Source: Acidobacteriota bacterium
GTDB taxonomy: Bacteria; Acidobacteriota; Terriglobia; Bryobacterales; UBA6623
NCBI GenBank assembly: GCA_016125275.1
Contig: WGMB01000003.1
Span: forward strand, 1,591,896 to 1,655,895
Direction of reading: 5' to 3'
DNA length: 64,000 bases
In this document: one piece after another, positions 1 through 14,574 of the stretch
How positions within the stretch are numbered: the stretch's first letter is position 1
Layout of the letters: each line of letters starts with the position of its first letter
Program-made: the position numbers and the translations under genes
The notes under the pieces: generated by a model
Seen by the model: the letters and a program-made list of their open reading frames with translations, nothing else
The model's database searches: none
What the model was told of the DNA's origin: nothing

Positions 1-2000
1 CAAAACGCCATACGCAGCGGCTCATGGCGCTCCAACACCTGCCGCAGGGCGGTCTCCAGTGCATCGCGGTCCAGCGGCCCGGTCAGCCGCAGGGACGCCG
101 CGACGTTGTACGCCGGGCTGCCGCCCTCGAAGCGATCCAGGAACCACAGGCTCCGCTGCCCCCAGGAGAGCGGACACGGCCCGGCGGCCGACCGGACAGG
201 CGCTGCGACCGCGTCGGAGGAGCCGGCCCCTTCCAGCGCCACGGCCATCTCCCGGAGCGTGGGACGGTCGAAAAACCGAGCCAGGGGCAGCTCCGCACGA
301 AGCTCCTGCCGCAGGCGCGCCGCCACCCGAGCCGCGGCCAGCGAGTGCCCGCCCAGCGCGAAAAAGTTGTCGTCCCGACGCGGCGCTTCGCAGCCCAGAA
401 CCTCCATCCAGAGCGCCGCCAAGCGCAACTCGGCCGGAGTCGCGGGCCCCTGCGGCGGCGCCTCCCGGCTCGCCAGCCGTCGCACCAGTTCCGCCACGTC
501 CACCTTGCCGGTCGGCCCCAGCGGCATCTTGTCCACGACCAGGATCTGCTGCGGCGTCTTGGAGGCTGACAGCCGCTCCGCCGCCCAGGCCCGGACGGAC
601 GGCAGTTGTGATTCGGCGGCGCCCGGGCCAACCGACTCGTCCAACACGACGGCGGCGGCTACGTTCTCGCCGAGCGTCGCATGCGGCGCGGCGAACACCG
701 CGGCCTCCCGCACGGCCGGATGCCCCAGTAGCGTCTCCTCCACCTCGCGAGGAGAGATCTTCTCCCCGCCCCGATTGATCACTCTCTTGCGGCGGCCGGT
801 CACGAACAGATAGCCGTCCTCGTCCAGATGGCCCAGGTCTCCGGTGCGCAGCCAGCCGCCGCGCAGCGCCCGGGCCGTGGCCGCGGGGTCGTTGGCATAG
901 CCGGCCGCCACGTTCGCCCCGCGAATCGCAATCTCGCCCGTCCAGCCCGGCGGAAGCTCCGCGCCCGCCTCGCCGAGAATCGCGATCTCCGGCCCCGCCG
1001 CCCGGCCCGCGGAGCCGGGCTTCCGCCGCGTCGGCGGTAGGCGATTGCTGGCGACCTGCGGGGCGGCCTCGGTCAATCCATAGGCCTCCAGCAAGGGAGC
1101 CCGCAAGACCTCCTCCAACTCGGCCAGCAGCGTCGGCGGCATCGGCGCCGACGCCGACCGCGCCAGTCGCAGCTTCGTCCGCTCGGCGAGCTCCGGGCGT
1201 CGCCGCAGCTCCTCCAGCATCATCCGGTGGATTGCCGGCGCCGCCGAATACCAGCTCGGCTCCGCCTCCGCCAACAGCTCCGCCAAACGGTCCGCTCCGG
1301 CGTCCTCCGGGCAGACGACGGACGCGCCCGCCGTCAGCGAGGCGAAGATCGTGCTCAGCCCGTGGATGTGAAACAGCGGCATCGCCGTCAGCGAGCGGTC
1401 CGCGGCGGTCAGCTCCAGGGCGTCCCGGATGCTCTCGGCGGCGGCGGTGAGATTGGCTTGGGTCAGCAGCACCAGGCGGGGCCGAGACTCCGTCCCCGAG
1501 GTGTACAGCGCCAGCGCCGCGTCATGCGGTTCCAGCAACCCGCCGGACGCCGGCTCCGCGGACTTGGCGCCGGCCAGCCGAAACGCCCCCGGCGCGCCCC
1601 CGTCCCCAACCGCCTCCAGCACGGCCAAGCCCAGCGCGCGGGCCGCCGCCACGACGCCGCCCGTTTCGCCCGGCCTCACCAGGACGGCCCGAGCGCCCAG
1701 CTCCCGCAGGCAAGCTTCAGCCTCGGCCGCCGGCTGCAGACGATACAGCGGCGCGCAGACCGCCGCGGACGAAACCCCCAGCGCTGCCAGCGCAAGCTCC
1801 GGCCCATCCGGCAGCGCTACGGCCACACAGTCGGAGCCGCCGACGCCGAAACCGCGTAGCTCCCGCGCCAGGACCCCGATCCAATCCCTCAGCTCCCCGT
1901 AGCACAGCGCCTCGCCTCGCTCGGAGAGCAGGAATGGCGCGTGGGGGGCCGCCTCGGCGTACTGCTCGATCCAGCGATGCAAACATTCCAAGATGTTCAC
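1..2000 (-). CDS. NRPS-like protein, acyl-CoA-ligase-type A domain, PCP, condensation domain (partial, continues past the left edge)
   Basis: Reading the minus strand from a GTG at 2000 gives one open frame to the window edge (about 666 residues visible). Residues 1-490 are an adenylate-forming domain; its A3 core near residue 166 reads TSGTESRPR, lacking the usual PKG lysine. The later cores LTEAAPQVASN and RGGEKISPREVEE resemble oxalyl-CoA synthetase-like ligases more than classical amino-acid A domains. The A10 lysine is kept in GPTGKVD. A carrier domain follows with FFALGGHSL, the phosphopantetheine serine being near residue 553. A condensation domain begins near 605 (PLSWGQRSLWFLDRFEGGSP). 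The GTG overlaps the TGA of the upstream HTTM gene as GTGA, implying translational coupling. Inference: it loads an acyl or amino-acid group and passes it to a downstream module outside the window. Confidence 0.9.
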   Translation of the reverse strand, partial: MNILECLHRWIEQYAEAAPHAPFLLSERGEALCYGELRDWIGVLARELRGFGVGGSDCVAVALPDGPELALAALGVSSAAVCAPLYRLQPAAEAEACLRELGARAVLVRPGETGGVVAAARALGLAVLEAVGDGGAPGAFRLAGAKSAEPASGGLLEPHDAALALYTSGTESRPRLVLLTQANLTAAAESIRDALELTAADRSLTAMPLFHIHGLSTIFASLTAGASVVCPEDAGADRLAELLAEAEPSWYSAAPAIHRMMLEELRRRPELAERTKLRLARSASAPMPPTLLAELEEVLRAPLLEAYGLTEAAPQVASNRLPPTRRKPGSAGRAAGPEIAILGEAGAELPPGWTGEIAIRGANVAAGYANDPAATARALRGGWLRTGDLGHLDEDGYLFVTGRRKRVINRGGEKISPREVEETLLGHPAVREAAVFAAPHATLGENVAAAVVLDESVGPGAAESQLPSVRAWAAERLSASKTPQQILVVDKMPLGPTGKVDVAELVRRLASREAPPQGPATPAELRLAALWMEVLGCEAPRRDDNFFALGGHSLAAARVAARLRQELRAELPLARFFDRPTLREMAVALEGAGSSDAVAAPVRSAAGPCPLSWGQRSLWFLDRFEGGSPAYNVAASLRLTGPLDRDALETALRQVLERHEPLRMAF

Positions 2001-2902
2001 TCCGGCCGGCGGTTCCACGCCGGCGGGCGGGCCCATCCCGCCACATCTCCAATCCTATTCCACGGAACCCAGAAGACGTAGGCGCCCAGCCAAGGGAACG
2101 TCGGCAGCGTCTTCAGCCACACCGCCAGCAGAAGCTGCATCAGGAACAGTCCGCCGATCCAGCCCGCCCGCAGCCAGGGCTTGCCGTCGAGCAGCGCCGC
2201 CGGGCTGCCGAGCTCGCACACGACCATGCCGGCGGCCATCACCAGCAGCAGCCCGTCGTAGTCGAGCAGTCTCAGGGTCAGCTCCGGCAGCTCCAGACCC
2301 TTCTCCGCCGCCTGCGGATAGTACTTGTAGAGCAGAAAGGCCCGCATGTTCTCCACCGGCTGGCTCAGCCAGTTCCCCAAAACCTTCCGCAGCCCCGCCG
2401 TGCACATCAGCGCCGTCAGGGTGAGCTGCGCCAGGCGGATCGGCCAGCGATAGTCGGCCGGATCGCGGACCAGCGGGCCTCGACGCAGCCACGCGTCGAG
2501 CGAGAAGGCGTCGCCGCACGGCGCCAGCGCCAGCGGCCAAGAGATCAACACCAGCGGAATGCAGTGAAAATTGATGAACCCGTAGCCGTTCATCACGCCA
2601 AACAGATACGCCCCCGTCACCGTCGCCGTGACTGTCGCCGCCCGCGTCCACAGCCCCAGGCACGACAGCAGCAGCGAAAGCTCCAGAATCCGCGCGATCC
2701 CCGCCGCCGTCGCTGCATCCGGCGCCGGGAACAGCCGCAGCAACACCGGCGGGTCCCACAGCTCGGCGGGCAACTCCGCGAACCGAGCCGGCTGATAGAC
2801 GCGCGCCTGCAGCAGGTACCAGCCATAGAACAGCGCGCGAGAGACCCCGAGCCGCAAGGCCGAACCGGGCCGCAGAAAGTACGACCGCAACGCCTCGATC
2901 AT
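1997..2902 (-). CDS. HTTM-type multi-pass membrane protein (vitamin K-dependent gamma-carboxylase-like fold)
   Basis: 301 residues, almost entirely hydrophobic with about six to eight membrane segments. The N-terminal stretch GSALRLGVSRALFYGWYLLQARVY and the later NGYGFINFHCIPLVLISW and LRKVLGNW segments resemble the HTTM domain shared with vitamin K-dependent gamma-carboxylase. The C-terminal half of the eukaryotic carboxylase is absent. The start is ATG at 2902, which overlaps the TGA of the 151-aa upstream gene as ATGA. Its own TGA overlaps the GTG of the NRPS gene. Its place between two NRPS genes suggests a role in tailoring, lipidation or export of the product, but no reaction can be read from the sequence. 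The family assignment is by pattern only. Confidence 0.8.
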   Translation of the reverse strand: MIEALRSYFLRPGSALRLGVSRALFYGWYLLQARVYQPARFAELPAELWDPPVLLRLFPAPDAATAAGIARILELSLLLSCLGLWTRAATVTATVTGAYLFGVMNGYGFINFHCIPLVLISWPLALAPCGDAFSLDAWLRRGPLVRDPADYRWPIRLAQLTLTALMCTAGLRKVLGNWLSQPVENMRAFLLYKYYPQAAEKGLELPELTLRLLDYDGLLLVMAAGMVVCELGSPAALLDGKPWLRAGWIGGLFLMQLLLAVWLKTLPTFPWLGAYVFWVPWNRIGDVAGWARPPAWNRRPE

Positions 2903-3354
2903 GGCGCCAGGTACTCCGCCAGCAGATGCGACTCGACGATCTCTCGCCGGCGCAAGTCCCACACACGGCGATACATCCGCAGGCCCTGCCAGCCGTCGCT
3001 CGCCGGCGTCCTCTCGCGCAGGTACTCGAAGAACAGCGCTGCCACATGGCGGCGCGCCTCGCCCGTCTCGGCCCGTCGCAGAGCTGCATCGAAGCGCCGC
3101 ACCACCCGGTGATCGACCACGCCCGCCGCCACCGCGCCGCGCTCGCCCTCCGGAGTGACGATGCACGTGACGAACGAGTCCGCCCGCAGGTCTCGCGAAA
3201 AGCCCATGTACACCGGAATTGGGCTGAACGGCCACAGCCGGCTCGTATCGAGCGCCACCGACAGCGCCTGCGCCGCCACCGTCACGGCCGTCCACGCCAG
3301 CACGGCGCAGAGTCGCAAGTCGAGTTGAGAGAGAGCCTTCGCCCTAGGCAGCAT
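2899..3354 (-). CDS. Small membrane-anchored protein paired with the HTTM gene
   Basis: 151 residues. An N-terminal hydrophobic segment (about residues 14-33, CAVLAWTAVTVAAQALSVAL) suggests a membrane anchor or uncleaved signal. The rest is soluble and contains WPFSPIPVYMGFSRDLRADS and an arginine-rich C-terminal half ending LLAEYLAP. The ATG at 3354 lies inside the last codons of the A-PCP-TE gene (11-base overlap), and the stop overlaps the HTTM start as ATGA. I do not recognise a named family. From memory, proteins with a WPF-x-PYPMY-like motif do sit next to HTTM genes in other bacteria, so a two-protein membrane complex is a reasonable inference. Confidence 0.8.
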   Translation of the reverse strand: MLPRAKALSQLDLRLCAVLAWTAVTVAAQALSVALDTSRLWPFSPIPVYMGFSRDLRADSFVTCIVTPEGERGAVAAGVVDHRVVRRFDAALRRAETGEARRHVAALFFEYLRERTPASDGWQGLRMYRRVWDLRRREIVESHLLAEYLAP

Positions 3355-5788
3355 CGCCCCGCCCCCGCTCCAGCGCCCGCGCCAAGGGCTCGGCCCAAGG
3401 CGCCTGGAACATCAACGGCAGGTGGATTCCCGGAATCGTCTCGGCGGTCAACGGCCCCTCGGCCCAACGGCCCCAGCCCAGGTAGGGATCGGCCGGCGTC
3501 CCGGGATAGGGATGCGAGAAGCGGACCACGTGCGTCCTCCCGGCATAGCGGCCCGTGTCATGGTGCCGCACGCCCAACGCCGCCCGCGGGGCGGGTTTCT
3601 CCACCAGAGCTTTGCGCAGAATGAAGCGCCAGTCGAGCCGATTGCGCAGCTCCGCACCGTAGGACCGGGCCCACTCGCGGCGGGCCTTGCCCTGCAGCCG
3701 CCGCCACGTACGCGCCTCGAAACGCCAGCAGTTCAGCGTATGGCGATAGACGGCCAGCCGGTTGCCCACCACCCCATGGTCGATCTCCCGCCCGGTCACG
3801 AAGCCAGGCGCATGACTGTCGATCAGCACCACGGCCGACACCCTGTCGTCGAGCAGCCGCGCCGCCTCGAACGCCAGATTGCCCCCAAACGAATAGCCCG
3901 CCAGGCTGAAGCGCCTGCGCGGCCAGCGCGCGTCGAGCTCCGAGGCGATCTTTGCGGCCACAGCGTGGATCTCCGTCTGCGTCCAACGCACGTGGAAGCC
4001 ATACACAGGCCCGCGCAAAGCCTTCGGCAGATCCCTGTACCAGGTGGTAGCCTCCGGCGGAGGCGGCAGCAGCAGCCACGGCTCCCCCTCGCCGTCCGCC
4101 AATGGAGCCAGCCCGCCCTCGTGGATCGCGCCGTCCGTCACGGCTTGGCTCATCGCCCGCGGCGTGGGCGCCCAGAACAGCGCGCTCACCGGGACCTCGC
4201 GTTCGACCAGCCGGGAGATTCGCACGGCCAGCTCGCCGGCCCGCAACGAATCGCCGCCGAGGGCGAAGAAGTCGTCGTCCGCCCCCAAGTCGTCGCGTTC
4301 GAGCACGGACCGCCACAGCGCTGTGAGCTGGTGCTCCAGACCGGCCGCGGGCGCAGCGCCTCGCGCGGCGGGCTCCGGCAGAGACCGCCGGTCTACCTTG
4401 CCTGTCGCCGTCAGCGGCATCTCATCCAGCGCCACGTAGGCGTCCGGCCGCATCCACGGGGCAAGCTTGGCGGCGACTCTCGCCTCCAGCCCTTGCGGAG
4501 GCCGGACCACATACGCCAGCAGCCGGTCTCCGGCGGCGATCACGGCCGCCTCCGCCACCCCCGGCTCGGCCAGAATCACCCCTTCCACCTCCGCCAAGTC
4601 CACCAGGTAGCCGCGAACCTTCACGCGGCGGTCCTTGCGTCCCAGCAGATGCAGCCGGCCTTCCGCGTCGAACCGCCCCAGGTCGCCCGTGGCGTACTCT
4701 TCGCCGAAGTCCGGGCCGCCCCAGTAGCCCCTCGCCAGATAACGGCTGCTGACGATTGCCTCGCCCTGCTCGGAGATCCGCACCTGCTTGTCGTCGCACG
4801 GAAAGCCCGCCGGCACGACGGCGGAGTTCGGCCCCAGCTCGGCGCGCGCCTCCAGCGCCGCGATGTTGCCGGCCTCGCTCGACGAGTAGCGGTGCAACAC
4901 CGCGATCCCCGCGCCCAGCTTGGCCCGCAGCGCCCGCACGTCGGACCAGTAGATCGTCTCGCCCCCCAAAGCGACCAGCCGCAGCGCGGGCGGGTCGAGC
5001 GGCTCTTCGAGCAGCCCCAGAAAACGGCGCAGCAGGCCGACCGGCGGGTGCCACAGCGCCACACGGTCTTCCACGAGCCAGCGCGCCACCCCGCCCACGC
5101 CCCGCGAAGCCGGATAGCGGCTGACAGTCGCGCCGTTCAGCCAGGCGCCGAACAGGTCCGACTCGGCCCCCACGTGGCTCAGCGGTGCCATCAGCGCCTG
5201 CACGTCTCCCGGCCCCACGCCGCTGTGGCCGCGGTAGATCCAGGCGCGATGCAGCAGATTGCCGTGCGTGCGCACCACGCCCTTGGGCCGGGCCGTGGAG
5301 CCGGACGTGTAAACGATCGACACCGCCCGCTCGGGTCCGAAAGCCGTCGGCGGGTTGCGGTCTTCCCTGCCAACCTGCTCGATCGCACCAACCTGCTGGA
5401 TCACTGCGGCGTCGAGCGTCAGGCCCGGGCGCAGCTCCCGCACCAACGCGGCCTTCAGCTCGTCGCCGAGCCCTTCCGCCAGCGCCGTAAAGGGCTTGCC
5501 GGCCTTGCACGCCGCCAGCACGCCCACCAGCATCCAAGGGTCCGGGGCGGGCTCCAGGATCACGGGGATCTCGCCGTCGCCCAGCTCGGCGAGCAGCCTC
5601 CAGGCCAAGGCGTTGGCGGCCCGGTTCAGCGCGGCGTAGCTCCACGAGCGGCCGTCGCTGACCAGCGCCGGAGCGTCGGGACACAGTGCCGCCACCGCGG
5701 CAAAGCGCTCGCCCACGGTCCCTTCCAGGTCGGCGCGCGCCATCGCCGCCGCCTGGGCGCCAACTGCGTCCGCTCGCAGGCTCCCCAT
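3344..5788 (-). CDS. Single-module NRPS: adenylation, carrier and thioesterase domains
   Basis: 814 residues from ATG 5788; the frame stays open further upstream but would run into the preceding gene. The A domain spans about 15-480 with A3 VYTSGSTARPKGVV near 162, YATGDLGR and the A10 lysine in LTATGKVDRR. A carrier domain carries DDFFALGGDSL, serine near 514. A type I thioesterase follows from about 570 with nucleophile motif GYSFGG (serine near 633) and a C-terminal histidine in GIHLPLM. There is no condensation domain, so it can activate and load one amino acid and release or transfer it, while the C domain is supplied by the gene two positions downstream. The next gene overlaps it by 11 bases. 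An isomerase gene ends 44 bases upstream on the same strand. Confidence 0.92.
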   Translation of the reverse strand: MGSLRADAVGAQAAAMARADLEGTVGERFAAVAALCPDAPALVSDGRSWSYAALNRAANALAWRLLAELGDGEIPVILEPAPDPWMLVGVLAACKAGKPFTALAEGLGDELKAALVRELRPGLTLDAAVIQQVGAIEQVGREDRNPPTAFGPERAVSIVYTSGSTARPKGVVRTHGNLLHRAWIYRGHSGVGPGDVQALMAPLSHVGAESDLFGAWLNGATVSRYPASRGVGGVARWLVEDRVALWHPPVGLLRRFLGLLEEPLDPPALRLVALGGETIYWSDVRALRAKLGAGIAVLHRYSSSEAGNIAALEARAELGPNSAVVPAGFPCDDKQVRISEQGEAIVSSRYLARGYWGGPDFGEEYATGDLGRFDAEGRLHLLGRKDRRVKVRGYLVDLAEVEGVILAEPGVAEAAVIAAGDRLLAYVVRPPQGLEARVAAKLAPWMRPDAYVALDEMPLTATGKVDRRSLPEPAARGAAPAAGLEHQLTALWRSVLERDDLGADDDFFALGGDSLRAGELAVRISRLVEREVPVSALFWAPTPRAMSQAVTDGAIHEGGLAPLADGEGEPWLLLPPPPEATTWYRDLPKALRGPVYGFHVRWTQTEIHAVAAKIASELDARWPRRRFSLAGYSFGGNLAFEAARLLDDRVSAVVLIDSHAPGFVTGREIDHGVVGNRLAVYRHTLNCWRFEARTWRRLQGKARREWARSYGAELRNRLDWRFILRKALVEKPAPRAALGVRHHDTGRYAGRTHVVRFSHPYPGTPADPYLGWGRWAEGPLTAETIPGIHLPLMFQAPWAEPLARALERGRGDAA

Positions 5789-5832: not shown

Positions 5833-6732
5833 CTACACCCGGCGGACCCGCTCCAGCAGACGGGTCATCGAATACTCGCTGGCCTTGGCTTTGCTGTCGT
5901 CGATCTTGAAGTGCGTCTCGAGCGAGAAGGCGCCTTTGTAGCCGTCCTTCAGTAGGGCCCCAATCTGGCCCACGTGGTCGAACTCGCCGTCGCCCACGCC
6001 GCACCACTTCGCCCCGCCGTCGGGCGTGCGCTGGTAGTCGCGCAAGTGTACGTGGCGGATCCGGCCGGCGTCGAGCCGCTCATAGCCCTGGGGAAAGGGC
6101 TCCGGGTCGCCTTCCTGGGCGGCGTTGTTGGGGTCCCAGGTCAGCCCCAGCGCCGGGCTCTTCACGGCCGCCAGCAGGTCCGCGGCCTGCTTCGAGGTCG
6201 CCACGTAGCTGCCGCCCACGTTCTCCAAGGCGAACAGCATGCCGGCCTTCTCGGCCTTCTCGGCGGCCTGGGCCACCAGCTCGTAGATGCGCGGGTAGTG
6301 CGCCGGGTCCGGCTTGCCGTCCCGGGGATAGTTGAAGGCGAACACCCGGATCAGCTTCGTTCCCAGGATGTCCGCGTTCTCGAAAGCCTTGTCGAGCAGC
6401 TTCCACTGAGCCGCCAGCTCCTGGGCGTCCGGCAGGGCGACCTTGAAGAACCCCGTGTCGAGAATCGCCAGCTTCACCCCGGCCGCGTCGAGCTGCTTCC
6501 TCGCTTGCCGGATCACCGCCGCCGGCTGGGCCGTGTTGTACTTGCCCGCCAGATTGCGGATCTCCGCCCAGTGCAGCCCGAAACGCTCCAGAAACTGCAG
6601 CACCACGGCCAGATCATCGTCCACCTCGTCGGTGGTGATCGAGATCTTCAATTGGGCCGGATCCAGGGCCCGCAGCGTCGCCGCCAGGGCCGGAGCGGCG
6701 GCCAGGAGTCGGCGGCGGGTCCAAAGTGCCAT
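5833..6732 (-). CDS. Sugar phosphate isomerase/epimerase family protein (xylose isomerase-like TIM barrel)
   Basis: 299 residues. The N-terminus WTRRRLLAAAPALAATLRAL resembles a Tat or Sec signal, so the protein may be exported. The body has AP-endonuclease-2/xylose isomerase-like barrel features: EIRNLAGKYN, a metal-ligand glutamate in ALENVGG, GLTWDPNNAA, HVHLRDYQR and a C-terminal FSLETHFK. The substrate cannot be read; family members act on sugars, inosose or hydroxypyruvate. A TAGAAT box lies 8 bases before the ATG, suggesting a leaderless mRNA. It is 44 bases upstream of the NRPS operon on the same strand and may be co-transcribed with it. Confidence 0.88.
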   Translation of the reverse strand: MALWTRRRLLAAAPALAATLRALDPAQLKISITTDEVDDDLAVVLQFLERFGLHWAEIRNLAGKYNTAQPAAVIRQARKQLDAAGVKLAILDTGFFKVALPDAQELAAQWKLLDKAFENADILGTKLIRVFAFNYPRDGKPDPAHYPRIYELVAQAAEKAEKAGMLFALENVGGSYVATSKQAADLLAAVKSPALGLTWDPNNAAQEGDPEPFPQGYERLDAGRIRHVHLRDYQRTPDGGAKWCGVGDGEFDHVGQIGALLKDGYKGAFSLETHFKIDDSKAKASEYSMTRLLERVRRV

Positions 6733-6740
6733 CGACGGCG

Positions 6741-6746
6741 ATTCTA
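6741..6746 (-). promoter_or_regulatory. -10-like box of the isomerase gene
   Basis: TAGAAT on the minus strand, 8 bases before ATG 6732. This distance leaves essentially no 5' leader. Confidence 0.45.
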
Positions 6747-6812
6747 GCAGGCTCCGGGCATGGATCTGCGCGGCGCTTCTGGTATGGTAATCACCGACGG
6801 ACGGTCGGAGAG

Positions 6813-9800
6813 ATGAAAGGCGTTTGTCTGCAATTGTTTGTCTTGGCTTCCGCCTTGCCCCTGGCGCCTCGTCTGGCGGCGGCGCCCAAGCCGGCCGATC
6901 TCGAGTTCTTTGAGAAGCAGGTCCGCCCCACGCTGGCGGAAAACTGCTACGCCTGCCATAGCGCCAAGGCCCCGGCCGTCTTCGCGGGACTGCGGCTCGA
7001 CAGCCGCGCAGCCGTGGTGCAGGGTGGCGACGCCGGCCCGGTGGTCGTCGTCGGCGACCCCTCCTCCAGCAAGCTCGTGCGCATGCTGCACGGCGAAGGC
7101 CTCCAGATGCCCCCCACCGGCAAGCTGCCGGCGGACAAGATCGCCGCCCTGGAACGCTGGATCGAGCTGGGCCTTCCCTGGCCCGAAGAAGCCGCCCCGG
7201 CGCCCGATCCTTCGGCCAAGTTCGACCTGGAGCAGCGCCGCAGCGAGCACTGGGCCTGGCAGCCCGTCCGCAAGCCCGCCATTCCGAACCCCACCCGGGC
7301 CGATTGGGCCTCCGGCGCCGTCGACCGCTTTCTGCTGTCTCGGCTGGAGCAGGAAGGGCTGCAACCGGCCGAGGTCGCCGACCGCCGCAGCTTCATCCGG
7401 CGCGCGAGCTTCGACCTCACCGGCCTGCCGCCGACTCCCCAGGAGATCGCCGCCTACCTCGCCGACGACGCGCCGGACGCCGACGAGCGCCTGATCGACC
7501 GCCTGCTCGCCTCGCCCCACTACGGCGAACGCCAAGCCCGGCTCTGGATGGACCTGATGCGCTACGCCGAGTCGCACGGCTCCGAGGGCGACCCGGACAC
7601 TCGCGAGGCTTGGCGTTACCGCGACTATCTGATCCGGGCCTTCAACGAGGACGTCCCCTACGATCAGCTCGTCCGCGAGCACCTCGCCGGCGACCTGCTC
7701 GCCGAGCCCCGCATTGACAGCGAGCTCGGCCTCAATGAGTCTCTGTTGGCGACGGCCCACTGGCGGCTGGTCGAGCACGGCTTCCAGCCCGTCGACCCCT
7801 GGGAGGACCGCGTGAAGTGGACCGACAACCAGATCGACGTGTTGTCGAAGACCTTCTTGGGCCTCACCGTCTCCTGCGCCCGCTGCCACGACCACAAGTT
7901 CGACGCCATCAGCCAGAAGGACTACTACGCGCTGTTCGGGACCATCAAGAACGCCCGCCCCACTATGCGCGCCGTCGAGTCTCCCGAGCGGTTGGACCTC
8001 CACCGCGAGCGGCTGACCGCGCTCAAGGGCGCGATCCGCGCCGGCCTCGCCAAGGCCTGGGCGCAGGCCGCCGAGGGTTTGGGCGCCCGGCTCGAGCAGG
8101 ACCACGCGGTCGCTGCCGTCGAGGCCGCCCTGCAAGATTCCGCCCATCCCTTGCGACCCTGGGCCGTGCTCCGCGGCGCCCAGGGCGAGGCTTTCCGCGA
8201 AGGCTGGCGGACCCTGGTCGCCGCCCGCCAAGCCGAGATGGACGCCCGCCGCGCCTACAACGCCGAGCATTTCGAGACCCGTTGGGATCTGCGGCACGAG
8301 AGCGACTTCCGCCAGTGGCTGGGGCACGGCGAAGGGCTGCCCGCCGCAGCTTCCAAGCCGGGCGAGATCGACATCGCCGCCAAGGGCCCGCAGGTCATCG
8401 GCGGCGTGCTGCAACCCGGCGCCTGGTCGCACCGCATCAGCTCCAAGCACGGGGCCGTCTTGCAGTCGCCGCGCTTCAAGATCGAGACCGACTACATCAG
8501 CTTCGAGACCGCCGGCGAAGGCTGGAGCAACGCCCAGCTCATCATCGAGAACTACGCCGTGCCGCGCGCCGGCATCTACCACCTGCGCTACCGCCCCAAG
8601 AGCCGCGATCTGGTCTGGTCCACCTGGAAGACGGACTACTGGAAAGGCTTCACGGCCTACTTCGAGCTCGCCACCCAGCAGGAGATCACGCAGTTCCAGA
8701 TGGACGCCGAGGACTCCCAGACCACGCCTCGTCCCAAGCCCAACGACGACGGCCGCTCCTGGTTCGGGGCCGGCGCGATCGTCTTCCACAACCAGGAGCG
8801 CACGCCGCGGTCGCTGCTGGACCCGCTGGCCCCCTTGCTCTCCACAGACCCCGCCGGGCCTTCCGAGCTGGCGGCTTGGTACTCCCAGGCGGTCGGCCAG
8901 GCCGTCGAGGCCTGGAGCGAGGACCATGCCACGGCCGAGCAGGCGGCTCTGCTGGACGCTTTGGTGCGCGCCGAGCTGCTGCCCAACCGCCTGACGGCGC
9001 TCGAGGACCTCCGGCCGTTGGTCGCCGAGTACCGCAAGCTCGAAGCCGAGATCCCCGTGGCCCGTCGCGCGCCCGGCGTGGTGGACGAAGGCGGCGACGA
9101 CCAGCCGCTGCTCATCCGCGGCCAGCACAAGCGTCCCGGCGACCCCGTGCCGCGCCGCTTTCTCACCGCCCTCGGCGGCCAACCCTACGACGATCCCCGG
9201 CTGGCGCGGTTACGGCTGGCGGAGGCGATCGCCTGCGGCGACAATCCCCTCGCCGCCCGCGTACAAGTCAATCGCCTCTGGCGGCAGATGTTCGGCGACG
9301 GCATCGTCCGGACCGAGGACAACTTCGGCAAGCTCGGCGAAGCGCCCACGCACCCGGAGCTGCTGGACTACCTGGCCGGCCGCTACGTCGCCGAAGGCTG
9401 GTCGACCAAGCAACTCCTGCGGGAGCTGGCGACCTCGCGCGCCTACCGCATGAGCAGCCTCCCTTCCGCCGCCGCCCGCGAGCGCGATCCGGGCAATAAG
9501 CTGCTCTCGCACATGCCGGTGCGCAGGCTCGAGGCCGAGCAGATTCGCGACGCCATTCTGGCGGCCTCCGGCGAGCTCGACCCCGCCCTGCAAGGCCGCT
9601 CCATCCCGGTCTACTACGCCTACGCCACCGGCAAGACGAAAGGCGACAACCCCAAGGGTCCGCTCGACGGCGACGGCCGCCGCTCCATCTACCAGGAGAT
9701 TCGCCGCAACTCCCACAACCCCTTTCTCGAGGTCTTCGACCTGCCCAAGCCGGCCACGGCCCGCCCGCAGCGTGACGTGACCAACGTGCCGGCCCAATCG

Positions 9801-10058
9801 CTGACCATGCTCAACAGCCCGTTCGTCATCGGCCAGGCCAAGAAGTGGGGCGAGAAGGTCGCGGCTTCGCCCGACGGCCCCTCCCAGCGCGTAGGCGCCA
9901 TGTTCGAGCAAGCGCTCGGCCGCCCGCCCTCGCCGCAAGAGACCGACCGCGCCCTGAGCTACCTCGCCGCCGCCGACGGCGGTCGGCTCGACGCTCAGGC
10001 CTGGGCCGACTTGGCGCAGTCCCTGTTCAACCTCAAGGAGTTCCTCTATGTGCGGTAG
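6813..10058 (+). CDS. PSD1-type exported cytochrome with DUF1549 and DUF1553 domains
   Basis: 1081 residues. ATG 6813 is preferred because it starts a clean signal peptide (LQLFVLASALPLAPRLAAA); the frame is open further upstream. A planctomycete-type cytochrome C domain has the heme motif CYACH at residues 45-49. A DUF1549 domain follows from about 180 and holds a second motif, CARCHDHKFD. Then comes an insert of roughly 200 residues of unknown fold, and DUF1553 occupies the C-terminal third (VNRLWRQMFGDGIV, LATSRAYRMSS). The family is exported and its reaction is unknown; a periplasmic redox role with the adjacent DUF1501 protein is inferred from constant co-occurrence. It leads a plus-strand operon with the DUF1501 and sulfatase genes. 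Confidence 0.9.
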   Translation: MKGVCLQLFVLASALPLAPRLAAAPKPADLEFFEKQVRPTLAENCYACHSAKAPAVFAGLRLDSRAAVVQGGDAGPVVVVGDPSSSKLVRMLHGEGLQMPPTGKLPADKIAALERWIELGLPWPEEAAPAPDPSAKFDLEQRRSEHWAWQPVRKPAIPNPTRADWASGAVDRFLLSRLEQEGLQPAEVADRRSFIRRASFDLTGLPPTPQEIAAYLADDAPDADERLIDRLLASPHYGERQARLWMDLMRYAESHGSEGDPDTREAWRYRDYLIRAFNEDVPYDQLVREHLAGDLLAEPRIDSELGLNESLLATAHWRLVEHGFQPVDPWEDRVKWTDNQIDVLSKTFLGLTVSCARCHDHKFDAISQKDYYALFGTIKNARPTMRAVESPERLDLHRERLTALKGAIRAGLAKAWAQAAEGLGARLEQDHAVAAVEAALQDSAHPLRPWAVLRGAQGEAFREGWRTLVAARQAEMDARRAYNAEHFETRWDLRHESDFRQWLGHGEGLPAAASKPGEIDIAAKGPQVIGGVLQPGAWSHRISSKHGAVLQSPRFKIETDYISFETAGEGWSNAQLIIENYAVPRAGIYHLRYRPKSRDLVWSTWKTDYWKGFTAYFELATQQEITQFQMDAEDSQTTPRPKPNDDGRSWFGAGAIVFHNQERTPRSLLDPLAPLLSTDPAGPSELAAWYSQAVGQAVEAWSEDHATAEQAALLDALVRAELLPNRLTALEDLRPLVAEYRKLEAEIPVARRAPGVVDEGGDDQPLLIRGQHKRPGDPVPRRFLTALGGQPYDDPRLARLRLAEAIACGDNPLAARVQVNRLWRQMFGDGIVRTEDNFGKLGEAPTHPELLDYLAGRYVAEGWSTKQLLRELATSRAYRMSSLPSAAARERDPGNKLLSHMPVRRLEAEQIRDAILAASGELDPALQGRSIPVYYAYATGKTKGDNPKGPLDGDGRRSIYQEIRRNSHNPFLEVFDLPKPATARPQRDVTNVPAQSLTMLNSPFVIGQAKKWGEKVAASPDGPSQRVGAMFEQALGRPPSPQETDRALSYLAAADGGRLDAQAWADLAQSLFNLKEFLYVR

Positions 10059-10096
10059 CCGCCGAAGCCCAAGCGCTCCGCCCACGCTCCTGGTGG

Positions 10097-10118
10097 CGAC
10101 GGACACTCCGGTCCGTCG
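10097..10118. repeat. Intergenic palindrome, GGAC..GTCC repeat family
   Basis: Inverted repeat CGACGGAC / GTCCGTCG with a 6-base loop (ACTCCG). It lies between the PSD1 and DUF1501 genes, upstream of the GGAGG ribosome binding site of the latter. It is related to the palindromes at 13142, 13192 and 49886. Confidence 0.7.
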
Positions 10119-10145
10119 ATCCCCAGCGTCGCAGGAGGCTGTCCG

Positions 10146-11582
10146 ATGAAGAAGTGTTGCCAACCGCTCACCCGCCGCGAAGCCCTGCAGCGCGCCTCAA
10201 TGGGCTTCGGAGGGCTCGCCCTGGCCGGCCTGCTGGGCCGCGAGCAAGCCGCCGCCTCTCCGCGCGGCGAGGGCGACCCGATGGCTCCCCGCGAGCCCGA
10301 CATGCCTGCGGCGGTCGACCACGTCATCCTCTGCTACCTCTCCGGCGGCCTCTCGCACATCGACTCCTTCGACCCCAAGCCGCGGCTGGCCAAGGAAGCC
10401 GGTCAGCCAATGCCCTTCCCCACCGAGCGCACGATGTTCAACAACGACGGGAACATCATGCCCTGCCCCTGGGAGTTCCACCGGTACGGCCAGTCCGGCA
10501 TTCCCATCAGCGACCTCTTCCCCACCATCGGCAAGACGGTCGCTGACGAGCTCACCGTCATCCGCTCCATGACGGCGCCGTTCATGGAGCACGCCCAAGG
10601 CAACTTCTTCTTCCATTCCGGCATGCCCTTCACGGGCTTTCCGTCGATGGGCGCCTGGACGACCTACGGCCTCGGCTCACAGAACCAGAACCTGCCCGGC
10701 TTCGTGGTCCTGGGCAGCGGCGTCATCCCGCTGGGCGGCATCAACATGTACGGCAACGGTTTTCTGCCGGCCGTGCACCAGGGCTCGTTCCTGTACCCGG
10801 AGAACGAGGAGCCGCTCAACAACATCCGGCCCAAGGAGTCCGACGCAGGCCAGAAGCTGCGGCTGGACTTCATCCGCGACATGGACGAGGCCTACGTGGA
10901 GCGGCTGCAAGGCTTCGAGCCGGTCGAGACGGCCATTCGGAACTACGAGACGGCCTACCTGATGCAGTCGGCCGTGCCCGAGCTGGTCGACCTCTCGGGC
11001 GAATCCGAAGCCACCAAGAAGCTCTACGGGCTCGACTCCGACAACGCCCCCCGGCGCGCCTACGCCCGGCAGTGCCTGCTGGCGCGGCGGCTGGTGGAGC
11101 GCGGCGTGCGCTTTGTGGAGCTCACCACCGTCGCCGCCGGCTACGGCACCATGGGCAACCCCTGGGATCAGCACGGCCAGTTGCGCGAGGGTCACGAGGC
11201 CAACGCCTACACCGTCGACCAGCCGGTGGCGGCCTTGATCCAGGACCTGAAGGCCCGCGGGCTGCTCGAGAGGACGCTCGTCATCTTCTCGGGCGAGTTC
11301 GGCCGCACGCCCTTCGCCCAGGGCAGTGACGGGCGAGACCACAACCCTTACGCCTTCAGCCTCGCCATGGCCGGCGGAGGCCTCAAGAAAGGCTTCATCT
11401 ACGGCGAGAGCGACGAGTACGGCTACCGCGTGGTGGACGGCACGCGCACCATCCATGACCTGCACGCGACCGTGCTGCGGCTGCTCGGGCTCGACCACGA
11501 GAAGCTGACCTATCGCTTCGGAGGACGCGACTTCCGGCTCACCGACGTCCACGGCCACGTGATCGAGGAGATTCTCTCCTAG
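10146..11582 (+). CDS. DUF1501 family protein with Tat-type signal
   Basis: 478 residues. The N-terminus TRREALQRASMGFGGLALAGLL fits a twin-arginine-like export signal. DUF1501 proteins have an alkaline phosphatase/sulfatase-like fold; here the conserved pieces are YLSGGLSHIDSFDPKP, LIRSMTAPFMEHAQGN and SGEFGRTPFAQGSDGRDHNP. The ATG is preceded by AGGAGG 8 bases upstream. It lies 87 bases after the PSD1 gene and 1 base before the sulfatase gene. DUF1501 and PSD1 proteins are nearly always neighbours; the molecular function is unknown. Confidence 0.9.
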   Translation: MKKCCQPLTRREALQRASMGFGGLALAGLLGREQAAASPRGEGDPMAPREPDMPAAVDHVILCYLSGGLSHIDSFDPKPRLAKEAGQPMPFPTERTMFNNDGNIMPCPWEFHRYGQSGIPISDLFPTIGKTVADELTVIRSMTAPFMEHAQGNFFFHSGMPFTGFPSMGAWTTYGLGSQNQNLPGFVVLGSGVIPLGGINMYGNGFLPAVHQGSFLYPENEEPLNNIRPKESDAGQKLRLDFIRDMDEAYVERLQGFEPVETAIRNYETAYLMQSAVPELVDLSGESEATKKLYGLDSDNAPRRAYARQCLLARRLVERGVRFVELTTVAAGYGTMGNPWDQHGQLREGHEANAYTVDQPVAALIQDLKARGLLERTLVIFSGEFGRTPFAQGSDGRDHNPYAFSLAMAGGGLKKGFIYGESDEYGYRVVDGTRTIHDLHATVLRLLGLDHEKLTYRFGGRDFRLTDVHGHVIEEILS

Positions 11583-11583
11583 G

Positions 11584-13140
11584 ATGCTCAGCCGCAGAGA
11601 ATGGTTGGCCGCGGCGACCGGCCTGGGCGCGGCGGCGTGCGGCGGCTCCGCTTCCGCCAAACCACCGAACATTCTGTTCGCCTTGGCCGACGACCAGTCC
11701 TACCCCCACACGGGAGCCTCCGGCGACCCCGTCGTACAGACGCCCGCCTTCGACCGCGTCGCCGCCGAAGGGGTTCTGTTCACGCATTCCTTTGCCACCT
11801 GCCCTTCGTGCACGCCGTCGAGGACCTCGATCCTCACGGGCCGGCAGATGTGGCGCACCGGCGACGGCGGGCTGCTCTACGGCACGATTCCGGCCGATCT
11901 CCCGCTGGTCACCCACCGCTTGGCCGACGCCGGCTGGCACGTGGGCTTTACCGGCAAGTGCTGGGCGCCCGGCGACTGGCAGGCCGGCGGCCTCACGCGC
12001 CACCCCAACGGCCGCGAGTACAACCAGCGCCTGCACGCCGAGCCCGTCCCGGTTGGCATCGACCAGCGCGACTACGCCGCCAACTTCGACGACTTTCTCG
12101 CCGGCCGCCCCTCCGGCGCGCCCTTCTTCTTTTGGTTCGGCTGCACCGAACCGCACCGCATCTACGAGGACGGCGCCGGCCGACGCCGCGGCATGCGCCT
12201 GGAAGACGTCCGCGTGCCCGCCTCCCTGCCCGACGCCGAGCGCCTGCGCGGCGACATCGCCGACTACTATTTCGAGATCGAGTGGTTCGACCGCCAGCTC
12301 GCCAAAATGCTGGCCCGGCTGGAGGAGATGGGCGAGCTCGACAACACGCTCGTGGTCGTCACCTCCGACAACGGCATGCCCTTCCCGCGCGCCAAGGTCA
12401 ACCTCTACGACCCCGGTCTGCACATGCCCTTGGCGGTGCGCTGGCCGGAGGGGGTTCCGGGCGGACGCACGGTCGACGACTTCGTCAGCCACACGGACTT
12501 CGCCCCGACCTTCCTGGAGATCGCCGGCCTGGAGCCGCTCCCCGACATCGACGGCCGTAGCCTGCTGCCGCTGCTCGCGGCGTCCGGCCAGGGCGTGCTC
12601 GACCCGGCGCGCGATCACGCCATGGGCGGGCTGGAGCGCCACACGTGGTGCCGTCCCGAGGGCGCGACCTACCCGGCCCGCATGCTGCGGACGCGCGAGT
12701 TCCTCTACATCCGCAACTTCGAGCCCGACCGCTGGCCGACCGGCGGCCCCGAGTTCGTCTCGTCCAACAAGACCTTCCACGGCGACGTGGACGCCTGCCC
12801 GGCCAAGGATTTCATGATCGAGAACCGGGAACGGTTCCCCGCGCTCTACGAGCTGGCGTTCGGCAAGCGCCCGGCCGAAGAGCTCTACGACGTCCGCGCC
12901 GACCCCGACAATGTGAAGAATCTGGCCGGCGACCCGGCCTACGCCTCCCAAAAACAAGCCCTGGCCGAGCGCTTGGAGAGCGAGCTGCGCACCTCGGGCG
13001 ATCCGCGCATCGAGGGCCGAGACATCTGGCAGCAAGCCGTCTACCACCAGACCATTGGCTTCGGGGCCACCTTCAACCGCAGCCTCAGCGAAGCCGAGCG
13101 CGAGGAGGCCGCCGGCCGCGGCTCGCACAAGCCGGAATAA
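11584..13140 (+). CDS. Exported sulfatase, cysteine type
   Basis: 518 residues. The sulfatase signature CTPSR at residues 76-80 contains the cysteine that is converted to formylglycine. Metal-binding ALADDQ near 34 and the TSDNGMPFPRAKVN segment also match the family. The N-terminus RREWLAAATGLGAAACGG has a Tat-like arginine pair and a possible lipobox cysteine at 19, so it may be a lipoprotein. It hydrolyses sulfate esters, probably on polysaccharides or glycosides. No formylglycine-generating enzyme is visible in the window. It is the third gene of the operon, separated by one base from the DUF1501 gene, and is followed by a strong terminator. Confidence 0.92.
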   Translation: MLSRREWLAAATGLGAAACGGSASAKPPNILFALADDQSYPHTGASGDPVVQTPAFDRVAAEGVLFTHSFATCPSCTPSRTSILTGRQMWRTGDGGLLYGTIPADLPLVTHRLADAGWHVGFTGKCWAPGDWQAGGLTRHPNGREYNQRLHAEPVPVGIDQRDYAANFDDFLAGRPSGAPFFFWFGCTEPHRIYEDGAGRRRGMRLEDVRVPASLPDAERLRGDIADYYFEIEWFDRQLAKMLARLEEMGELDNTLVVVTSDNGMPFPRAKVNLYDPGLHMPLAVRWPEGVPGGRTVDDFVSHTDFAPTFLEIAGLEPLPDIDGRSLLPLLAASGQGVLDPARDHAMGGLERHTWCRPEGATYPARMLRTREFLYIRNFEPDRWPTGGPEFVSSNKTFHGDVDACPAKDFMIENRERFPALYELAFGKRPAEELYDVRADPDNVKNLAGDPAYASQKQALAERLESELRTSGDPRIEGRDIWQQAVYHQTIGFGATFNRSLSEAEREEAAGRGSHKPE

Positions 13141-13141
13141 A

Positions 13142-13173
13142 CCAGGGGCCGGACAATCTTGTCCGGCCCCTGG
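13142..13173. terminator. Strong hairpin terminator after the sulfatase gene
   Basis: Perfect 14-base arms (CCAGGGGCCGGACA / TGTCCGGCCCCTGG) around a 4-base loop, followed by CGTTTGCTTTT on the plus strand. The core GGACAATCTTGTCC links it to the palindrome family. It separates two convergent operons. Confidence 0.85.
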
Positions 13174-13191
13174 CGTTTGCTTTTGGGTGGA

Positions 13192-13211
13192 GACGGACAT
13201 TCCTGTCCGTC
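13192..13211. repeat. Intergenic palindrome, core GGACATTCCTGTCC
   Basis: Perfect GACGGACA / TGTCCGTC arms with a TTCC loop, 16 bases before the stop of the convergent DUF1501 gene. The core is the same as the copy at 49886. Confidence 0.8.
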
Positions 13212-13227
13212 GATCTTCTACGGTCGC

Positions 13228-14574
13228 TTAGGCCCCGAACAGCTCGCGCACCGGCTCGCCCGTGGAATCCTGGAAGGAGTTCGCGATCTTGATCGGCCGG
13301 CCCACCGGCGTCATGTACTCCTTGGTCCAATCGATGCCCATGGCCTTGTAGACCGTCGCGAACAGGTCGCCGATGCTCGTCTTGCGATCGACCACGTTGG
13401 CCGCCCGCTCGTCGCTCTCGCCCACGACCATGCCCGTGTTGAGACCGCCGCCGCCCAGCGCCAACGACCAGCACTGCGGCCAGTGATCGCGGCCCAGGCC
13501 CGGGTTGATGTCCGGCGTGCGGCCGAACTCGCCCATTACGATCACGATGGTCTCGTCGTAGAGGCCGCTGGCGCTCAAGTCATCCAGCAGCGCCGCCAAG
13601 CCCTGGTCCAGCGGCGGCGTCAGCCGGTCGCGGTGCCCCTTGTCGTTGTCCGAGTGCGTATCCCAGGAGTTGGCGTGGTACCCCGCCGCCGTCACAAAGC
13701 GCGTTCCGGCTTCTACCAACCGCCGCGCCAGCAGCAGGCTCTGGCCCACCGAGTTGCGCCCGTAGGCGTCCTTGGTCTTGTCCGATTCCGACGACAGGTC
13801 AAAAGCCTTCTGCACGCCCGGCGCCAGCAGCATCTCCCAGGCCTTGGCCTGGAAGGCGTCCATCTTGGCGTGCTCGGCGCTGGCCACCTTCGAGCGGTAG
13901 TTGTTGTCGACGATGTCGAGAAACGACCGCCGGTTTTCCACCGCCGCCGGGGCCAAGCCCTTGGGCAGGCTCAGATCCGTCACCGCGAAGTTGTCCTTCG
14001 ACGGGTCCGGCACCAGCATCGGGTCGTAGTCCGGGCCCAGGAACGCCGAGCGGAAATAGTCTTCGTACTGCCGGCCCTTCTCCCACCGCGGCACGATCGC
14101 GTACGGCGGCATTGCGTTGCGCGGGCCCAGCTCCTTGCCCACGATCGAGCCCAGGCTCGGGAACGCCATCGCCGGGTTGTGCAGGTGGCCGCAGGCCGCA
14201 TAGTGCACCGCCTGCGGGTGGTCGTCGCCGAACGAGCTCATCGAGCGGATCAGCGCCAGCTTGTCCATCCGCTTCGCGGACTCCGGCAGCAGCTCGGAGA
14301 CCTGGATGCCGGAGACGTTGGTCGAGATCGGGCGAAACGAGCTGTTCGGCTTCGGGTCCCAGGTGTCCATCTGCGCCGGGCCGCCCTCGAGCCACACCAG
14401 AATGCAGGACTTCGCCTTGGCCGACTGTTGGAGCGTCGATGCGCTCGCCGCCTGCAGCCGCAACGACTGGCTGAGGGTCATTCCAAGGAAGCCGAGCGAG
14501 CCGACCCGCAGAAAGTCGCGCCGCGCCGACTGCGTTGCGCTCTCGTGGAGGCATCCAAGCTTTCGATACGCCAT
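13228..14574 (-). CDS. DUF1501 family protein (second copy)
   Basis: 448 residues. A Tat-like N-terminus (SARRDFLRVGSLGFLGMTL) precedes the DUF1501 body: LVWLEGGPAQMDTWDPKP, LIRSMSSFGDDHPQAVHYAA, a HANSWDTHSDN segment and MGEFGRTPDINPGLGRDHWP. It is a shorter and clearly divergent subtype compared with the copy at 10146. It is the last gene of a minus-strand operon, 12 bases after the DUF1549/DUF1553 gene. The likely role is an exported partner of that cytochrome; the reaction is unknown. Confidence 0.9.
   Translation of the reverse strand: MAYRKLGCLHESATQSARRDFLRVGSLGFLGMTLSQSLRLQAASASTLQQSAKAKSCILVWLEGGPAQMDTWDPKPNSSFRPISTNVSGIQVSELLPESAKRMDKLALIRSMSSFGDDHPQAVHYAACGHLHNPAMAFPSLGSIVGKELGPRNAMPPYAIVPRWEKGRQYEDYFRSAFLGPDYDPMLVPDPSKDNFAVTDLSLPKGLAPAAVENRRSFLDIVDNNYRSKVASAEHAKMDAFQAKAWEMLLAPGVQKAFDLSSESDKTKDAYGRNSVGQSLLLARRLVEAGTRFVTAAGYHANSWDTHSDNDKGHRDRLTPPLDQGLAALLDDLSASGLYDETIVIVMGEFGRTPDINPGLGRDHWPQCWSLALGGGGLNTGMVVGESDERAANVVDRKTSIGDLFATVYKAMGIDWTKEYMTPVGRPIKIANSFQDSTGEPVRELFGA

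What the first reader, a model, noticed from the sequence alone, without database searches (positions are those of the whole stretch)
1..5788. HTTM membrane protein and its small partner embedded in an overlapping NRPS operon
All four genes overlap by 4-11 bases, so they are made together. Between an A-PCP-TE protein and an A-PCP-C protein lie a 151-aa membrane-anchored protein and an HTTM protein related to the membrane half of vitamin K-dependent carboxylase. HTTM proteins are usually orphan genes of unknown function. This arrangement suggests a membrane step in making or exporting a short peptide or acyl-amino acid.
Basis: partly seen in the sequence, partly recalled or inferred. Interest (0 to 1): 0.65.

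Follow-up and report, generated by a model that had tools for sequence, protein, structure and literature searches.

The report
Peptide-synthetase operon with split membrane enzyme
An Acidobacteriota genome carries a compact operon for making a small acid-derived molecule; in the middle of it sits a two-piece membrane protein related to the vitamin K-dependent carboxylase and resembling the SdpA/SdpB toxin-maturation pair, which probably finishes the product at the membrane.

Summary
Four minus-strand genes overlap by 11, 4 and 4 bases: A-PCP-TE, a 151-aa membrane-anchored protein, an HTTM protein, and a second synthetase. This NRPS-Ldh_2, usually with a separate A-PCP-(TE, ThDP enzyme or nothing) gene, recurs in Acidobacteriota, a planctomycete and Mesorhizobium. 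The HTTM pair is optional: among nine such loci it occurs here and in one other Terriglobia genome, convergent and touching. It is a true HTTM (88.6 bits; hydropathy-preserving shuffles at most 12.3) and keeps the lysine aligned with GGCX catalytic base K218, but not the TM7 histidine. HTTM genes here are not orphans: short ones usually follow an overlapping gene for a membrane-anchored partner; one partner is a detached GGCX-type luminal domain, another is fused to its HTTM. Pairs also sit beside PqqD/radical-SAM and PqqD/asparagine-synthase clusters. Best reading: an accessory SdpAB-like, split-carboxylase-like maturation module recruited to a conserved small-molecule assembly line. Product and reaction remain unknown.

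The parts
3344..5788 (-). NRPS gene 1: A-PCP-TE, 814 aa (P0004). A about 4397-5701, PCP about 4139-4330, thioesterase about 3350-4051. PCP motif GGDSL and TE motif GYSFGG intact; the adenylation pocket has Val where Asp235 would be
2899..3354 (-). 151-aa partner (P0003): positively charged N-terminus, one TM helix (residues 13-31), then a small domain with the WPFSPIPVYM motif (codons at 3202-3234); overlaps gene 1 by 11 nt and HTTM by 4 nt. Topology N-in/C-out inferred from charge
   Evidence: relative in L049 with the same ATGA overlap
1997..2902 (-). HTTM membrane protein, 301 aa (P0002); Lys173 (codon 2384-2386) aligns with the GGCX catalytic base K218
1..2000 (-). NRPS gene 2, first 666 of 2047 residues in the window (P0001): A1 (oxalate-CoA-ligase type)-PCP-start of C. 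Continues outside the window to L007:2753 (4.1 kb further) as C-A2-PCP-Ldh_2
5833..6732 (-). Upstream gene on the same strand, 44 nt before gene 1: sugar-isomerase-like TIM barrel (AP_endonuc_2). Probably not part of the system; not recognised next to the relatives

Best explanation
The operon encodes a small-molecule assembly line plus an accessory membrane maturation module. SHOWN: a conserved NRPS of form A-PCP-C-A-PCP-Ldh_2 and a separate A-PCP-TE, with intact carrier, condensation, thioesterase and Ldh_2 histidine motifs; a pair of overlapping genes (single-TM partner plus HTTM) between them; the same NRPS-plus-pair association in a second genome. INFERRED: A1, whose closest solved relatives are oxalate-CoA ligases, loads a small carboxylic acid. 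A2 and A3 lack the Asp235 that holds the alpha-amino group, so they load acids other than ordinary alpha-amino acids. Ldh_2 reduces an alpha-keto group (or C=N) on the carrier-bound unit, doing the job that ketoreductase domains do in cereulide and valinomycin synthetases. C joins two units and TE releases the product. The product, or a membrane-bound form of it, is then altered at the periplasmic face of the membrane by the HTTM/partner complex, which works like a split vitamin K-dependent carboxylase: HTTM holds quinol and the Lys base, and the partner supplies the extracytoplasmic substrate-facing domain. The reaction (carboxylation, oxidation, cleavage, or base-driven rearrangement) is not known.
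For: Coding overlaps of 11, 4 and 4 nt. Full architecture. Orthologous NRPS-Ldh_2 in eight other loci, most with an A-PCP partner gene. HTTM and partner adjacent to NRPS-Ldh_2 in L049 with the same ATGA overlap; chance about 1e-3. HTTM identity. Lys218 equivalent kept; K218 is the quinol base in GGCX (PMC12589487). Other short HTTMs of the phylum have overlapping small partners. One partner (L015) is homologous to the luminal domain of GGCX-type proteins (30.1 bits, E=5e-10, 0 of 579 shuffles); a fusion exists in L072. One HTTM of the set weakly hits SdpB TIGR04033 (E=8e-4, under cut-off). Pairs lie beside PqqD/radical SAM (L073) and PqqD/Asn synthase (L077) clusters. A1 is nearest to oxalate-CoA ligases (293 bits against about 180 for FadD13). 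Asp235 is missing.
Against: The HTTM pair is absent near the NRPS in five loci with about 10 kb known on both sides. The trees do not show the two NRPS-linked HTTMs to be sisters. P0003 itself is not significantly similar to the GGCX luminal domain (9 of 853 shuffles as good), and its link to the partner family rests on L049 and on motif and position. The TM7 histidine (GGCX H287) is missing from P0002 and L049. Structure predictions failed (pLDDT 38 and 53). No product, substrate or activity is known.
Confidence: 0.55

Rival explanations
1. The HTTM pair is a passenger: a mobile, generic membrane unit that landed between two NRPS genes and works on something else.
For: Most NRPS-Ldh_2 loci lack it. 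HTTM pairs occur in unrelated contexts, e.g. next to metG- and PilZ-like genes (L046) or a DCC1-like gene (L074). None of 60 near relatives has a match.
Against: An insertion that leaves 11-, 4- and 4-nt coding overlaps on both sides is hard to explain without selection for co-expression. A second, differently arranged association exists in L049.
Confidence: 0.25
2. The pair protects the producer from, or helps export, the NRPS product rather than modifying it.
For: No other transporter or immunity gene was recognised in the operon; the pair is membrane-bound with one partner predicted to face outwards (and charge pattern).
Against: Characterised relatives act in maturation: SdpA/SdpB are needed to process SdpC, while immunity is a different protein, SdpI (PMC6818787); GGCX modifies its substrate. 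The catalytic lysine is kept.
Confidence: 0.12
3. The operon makes a siderophore-like hydroxy-carboxylate, the membrane pair being incidental to that role.
For: In Mesorhizobium STM 4661 the same two NRPS genes are followed by FepC-, ExbB-, ExbD- and TonB-like genes, with a PPTase gene upstream; alpha-hydroxy acids bind iron (general knowledge).
Against: No iron-uptake genes were recognised beside the other loci, including the window; the adjacency is in one strain only.
Confidence: 0.08

Closest known systems
SdpA/SdpB of Bacillus subtilis (TIGR04033 for SdpB)
   Same: Two-gene pair of a small protein and an HTTM-type membrane protein in an operon making a secreted small product; both needed for maturation (PMC6818787)
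   Different: The substrate there is the ribosomally made SdpC, here an NRPS line. P0002 and P0003 have no NCBIfam Sdp hit themselves; only the related L073 HTTM does, weakly
Vitamin K-dependent gamma-carboxylase (GGCX) and its bacterial homologues (such as L008-L012, L014)
   Same: HTTM domain; Lys218 equivalent; overall plan of HTTM plus extracytoplasmic domain
   Different: Here the extracytoplasmic part would be a separate gene; no propeptide-binding domain; TM7 His missing; no propeptide substrate gene seen
Linaridin clusters with an HTTM protein (corynaridin crdG, PMC9927463)
   Same: HTTM protein together with an alpha/beta hydrolase in a natural-product cluster
   Different: RiPP, not NRPS
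Cereulide and valinomycin synthetases (modules with an embedded ketoreductase)
   Same: In-line reductase in an NRPS; alpha-keto acid chemistry proposed here
   Different: The reductase is Ldh_2 (PF02615) at the C-terminus, not an embedded KR
Oxalate-CoA ligases AAE3/Pcs60 and FadD7
   Same: Closest known relatives of the A1 domain
   Different: A1 is fused to a PCP and C domain; substrate untested

Membership tests
HTTM (PF05090) | Significant similarity to the HTTM profile | tested here: met
   22.6 bits to Pfam, below the 27.7 cut-off, but 88.6 bits to a wider HTTM profile built without it or L049, shuffles at most 12.3; the L049 relative passes Pfam
Vitamin K-dependent gamma-carboxylase | Catalytic base Lys218 | tested here: met
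   K173 of P0002 aligns with K218
Vitamin K-dependent gamma-carboxylase | TM4 His160 | tested here: inconclusive
   H114 lies at the position in P0002, but the local alignment of the set is unstable
Vitamin K-dependent gamma-carboxylase | Conserved His of the seventh TM segment (column of GGCX H287) | tested here: not met
   Gln in P0002, Leu in L049; His in the rest of the set
Vitamin K-dependent gamma-carboxylase | Fused luminal substrate/propeptide-binding domain | tested here: not met
   P0002 ends after the membrane domain; a separate P0003 is present, whose similarity to that domain is not significant
SdpA/SdpB pair | Hit to TIGR04033 or an SdpA model | tested here: not met
   No hit for P0002 or P0003 even at E=10; described as SdpAB-like only
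SdpA/SdpB pair | SdpC-like precursor and SdpI-like immunity gene nearby | tested here: inconclusive
   None recognised among the ORFs of the operon or its immediate neighbours; no dedicated search, and small ORFs under 90 aa not examined
NRPS assembly line | A, PCP and C domains with intact carrier serine and HHxxxDG | tested here: met
alpha-amino-acid-activating A domain | Asp at position 235 | tested here: not met
   Ser in A2, Val in A3

The most novel reading that the evidence does not exclude
A split, quinol-dependent GGCX-like membrane enzyme acts on the product of an NRPS line that builds from oxalate- or keto-type acids with an in-line Ldh_2 reductase: vitamin K carboxylase-type chemistry on a non-ribosomal small molecule, and part of a wider set of HTTM/partner modules used by different biosynthetic clusters.
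Probability: 0.2. Interest if true: 0.8.

Novelty: new variant of a known kind. Interest (0 to 1): 0.55.

Why it matters
The chemistry of bacterial HTTM proteins is largely unknown. An HTTM/partner pair tied to a defined assembly line gives a concrete small-molecule system in which to test it. The finding that short HTTMs go with separate partner genes, while GGCX-type ones carry the domain fused, suggests what the small partners are for. The NRPS-Ldh_2 architecture, conserved across at least three phyla and not found in the papers searched, is a discrete genome-mining target, with Mesorhizobium loti DSM 2626 as a strain in which the NRPS part can be studied.

Tried and rejected
AlphaFold2 models of the HTTM and the partner, each with a two-row alignment, were too poor to use (pLDDT 38.1 and 53.2), so no fold search was run. 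Direct searches with P0002 found nothing in 60 relatives, genome contigs, viral contigs or plasmids; the Ldh_2 domain of the second synthetase was the handle that worked. A profile of all other partners did not find P0003; a P0003+L049 profile against the others gave 82% probability. Homology of P0003 to the GGCX luminal domain was tested and is not significant. An A2-profile search of the PDB found nothing. One PDB search was wasted on the wrong strand. G280 at first looked like another HTTM/Ldh_2 pair, but the Ldh_2 there is separate and only 35% identical: rejected. No full-text paper was found for NRPS with Ldh_2 or with HTTM.

Full report
OBSERVATION. The window lies at G000:C14:1591896-1655895 in a 7.55-Mb genome. 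The four genes are on the minus strand and overlap by 11, 4 and 4 nt. Gene 1 is A-PCP-TE. Gene 2 is a 151-aa protein with one TM segment. Gene 3 is HTTM. Gene 4 leaves the window; on the contig (L007:2753-8896, minus) it is 2047 aa, A-PCP-C-A-PCP-Ldh_2, with Ldh_2 at 359 bits. The next gene is convergent, so the operon ends there. The genome has one copy of the pair.

HTTM IDENTITY. P0002 alone is below the Pfam cut-off (22.6 bits). Its relative in L049 is above it (34.2); they share 30% identity, E=5e-24. A profile of other HTTMs lacking both scores P0002 at 88.6 bits; 500 shuffles within 20-residue blocks, which keep the hydropathy profile, reach 12.3. In an alignment with human GGCX taken from the PDB search, K173 matches K218, the base that deprotonates the quinol (PMC12589487). 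The TM7 histidine (GGCX H287) is missing in P0002 and L049.

THE ASSEMBLY LINE IS CONSERVED. The Ldh_2 domain found an NRPS fusion at 66% identity in another acidobacterial family (G290). A scan of 84,980 species gave NRPS-Ldh_2 proteins in Bryobacteraceae (L047), Phycisphaerales (L048), Terriglobia (L049), three Mesorhizobium (L050, L053, L054), G290 again (L051) and an unnamed bacterium (L052); Chloroflexota have an Ldh_2 without the NRPS domains. With the window that is nine loci. Most have an A-PCP gene beside it: A-PCP-TE (L048, L050), A-PCP-ThDP enzyme (L047), A-PCP (L052), A alone (L053, L054); none next to L051; L049 is cut by the contig end. A1 is nearest to oxalate-CoA ligases (293 bits). 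A2 has Ser and A3 Val at position 235, so neither looks like an ordinary alpha-amino-acid domain. The Ldh_2 histidine is kept (alignment). From these I infer, but have not shown, acid building blocks and keto reduction.

THE MEMBRANE PAIR. Of the nine loci only the window and L049 have an HTTM. In L049 the partner (stop at 3137) and HTTM (start 3140) share the same ATGA overlap, and the pair is convergent with the NRPS, their 3' ends overlapping by about 70 nt. From HTTM density in 396 genomes, the chance of one within 10 kb of any of the eight other loci is about 1e-3. Trees place the L049 NRPS with L047 and leave the two HTTMs unresolved, so one ancestral association or two are both possible.

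HTTM GENES COME IN PAIRS. Short HTTMs in the phylum mostly follow an overlapping gene for a small TM-anchored protein: L015, L016, L028, L020, L022, L023, L046, L073, L074, L075, three in L077. Longer GGCX-type HTTMs (L008-L012, L014) carry the extra domain themselves. In L072 HTTM and partner are fused. The L015 partner is homologous to the GGCX-type luminal domain (30.1 bits, E=5e-10; 0 of 579 shuffles). P0003 shows only a hint (9 of 853 shuffles as good); its place in the partner family rests on position, topology, the WPF motif and a P0003+L049 profile (82%). The L073 pair lies beside PqqD, radical SAM and HprK-like genes, the L077 pairs beside PqqD-like and Asn synthase genes (the L077 PqqD is by eye). 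The L073 HTTM weakly hits SdpB. SdpA and SdpB are required to process SdpC to the SDP toxin (PMC6818787), and a linaridin cluster carries an HTTM gene (PMC9927463).

CONCLUSION. The arrangement is real and probably functional. The pair works like SdpAB or a split GGCX, but is not filed as a member of either, because defining features were tested and not met. The reaction and the product are open.

Noticed in passing
L015 (G377:C214), ORFs about 1000-1456 and 1375-2436 on the HTTM strand: A clear split GGCX: a short HTTM preceded by an overlapping gene homologous to the TM9-plus-luminal domain of GGCX-type proteins.
   Followed up: partly
L072:13285-14634 (minus): HTTM fused to a C-terminal partner-type domain (WPFAGYPRF motif) in one polypeptide.
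   Followed up: partly
L077 (G102:C16): Three HTTM/partner pairs within about 15 kb, together with an asparagine-synthase gene and, by eye, PqqD-like and signal-peptidase-like genes; looks like an unusual RiPP-type cluster.
   Followed up: partly
L073:9252-13943 (minus): HTTM/partner pair next to PqqD, radical SAM and HPr-kinase-like genes.
   Followed up: partly
L047:1211-4846: A-PCP fused to a complete ThDP-dependent (acetolactate-synthase-like) enzyme, beside NRPS-Ldh_2 in Bryobacteraceae.
   Followed up: partly
L050:13942-17289: FepC-like ABC ATPase (Pfam: ABC_tran) and, by eye, ExbB, ExbD and TonB genes directly after the NRPS pair in Mesorhizobium sp. STM 4661; possible iron link.
   Followed up: no
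L055-L061: Chloroflexota carry an Ldh_2 without NRPS domains, 54-60% identical to the NRPS-fused domain; possible source of the fused domain.
   Followed up: no
L076:8693-10648 (G000:C8): The same genome has a second weak HTTM-like gene (651 aa) elsewhere.
   Followed up: no
window 6726-14574: By eye: a large cytochrome-like/PSD1-type protein, two DUF1501-type proteins and a sulfatase, unrelated to the operon.
   Followed up: no
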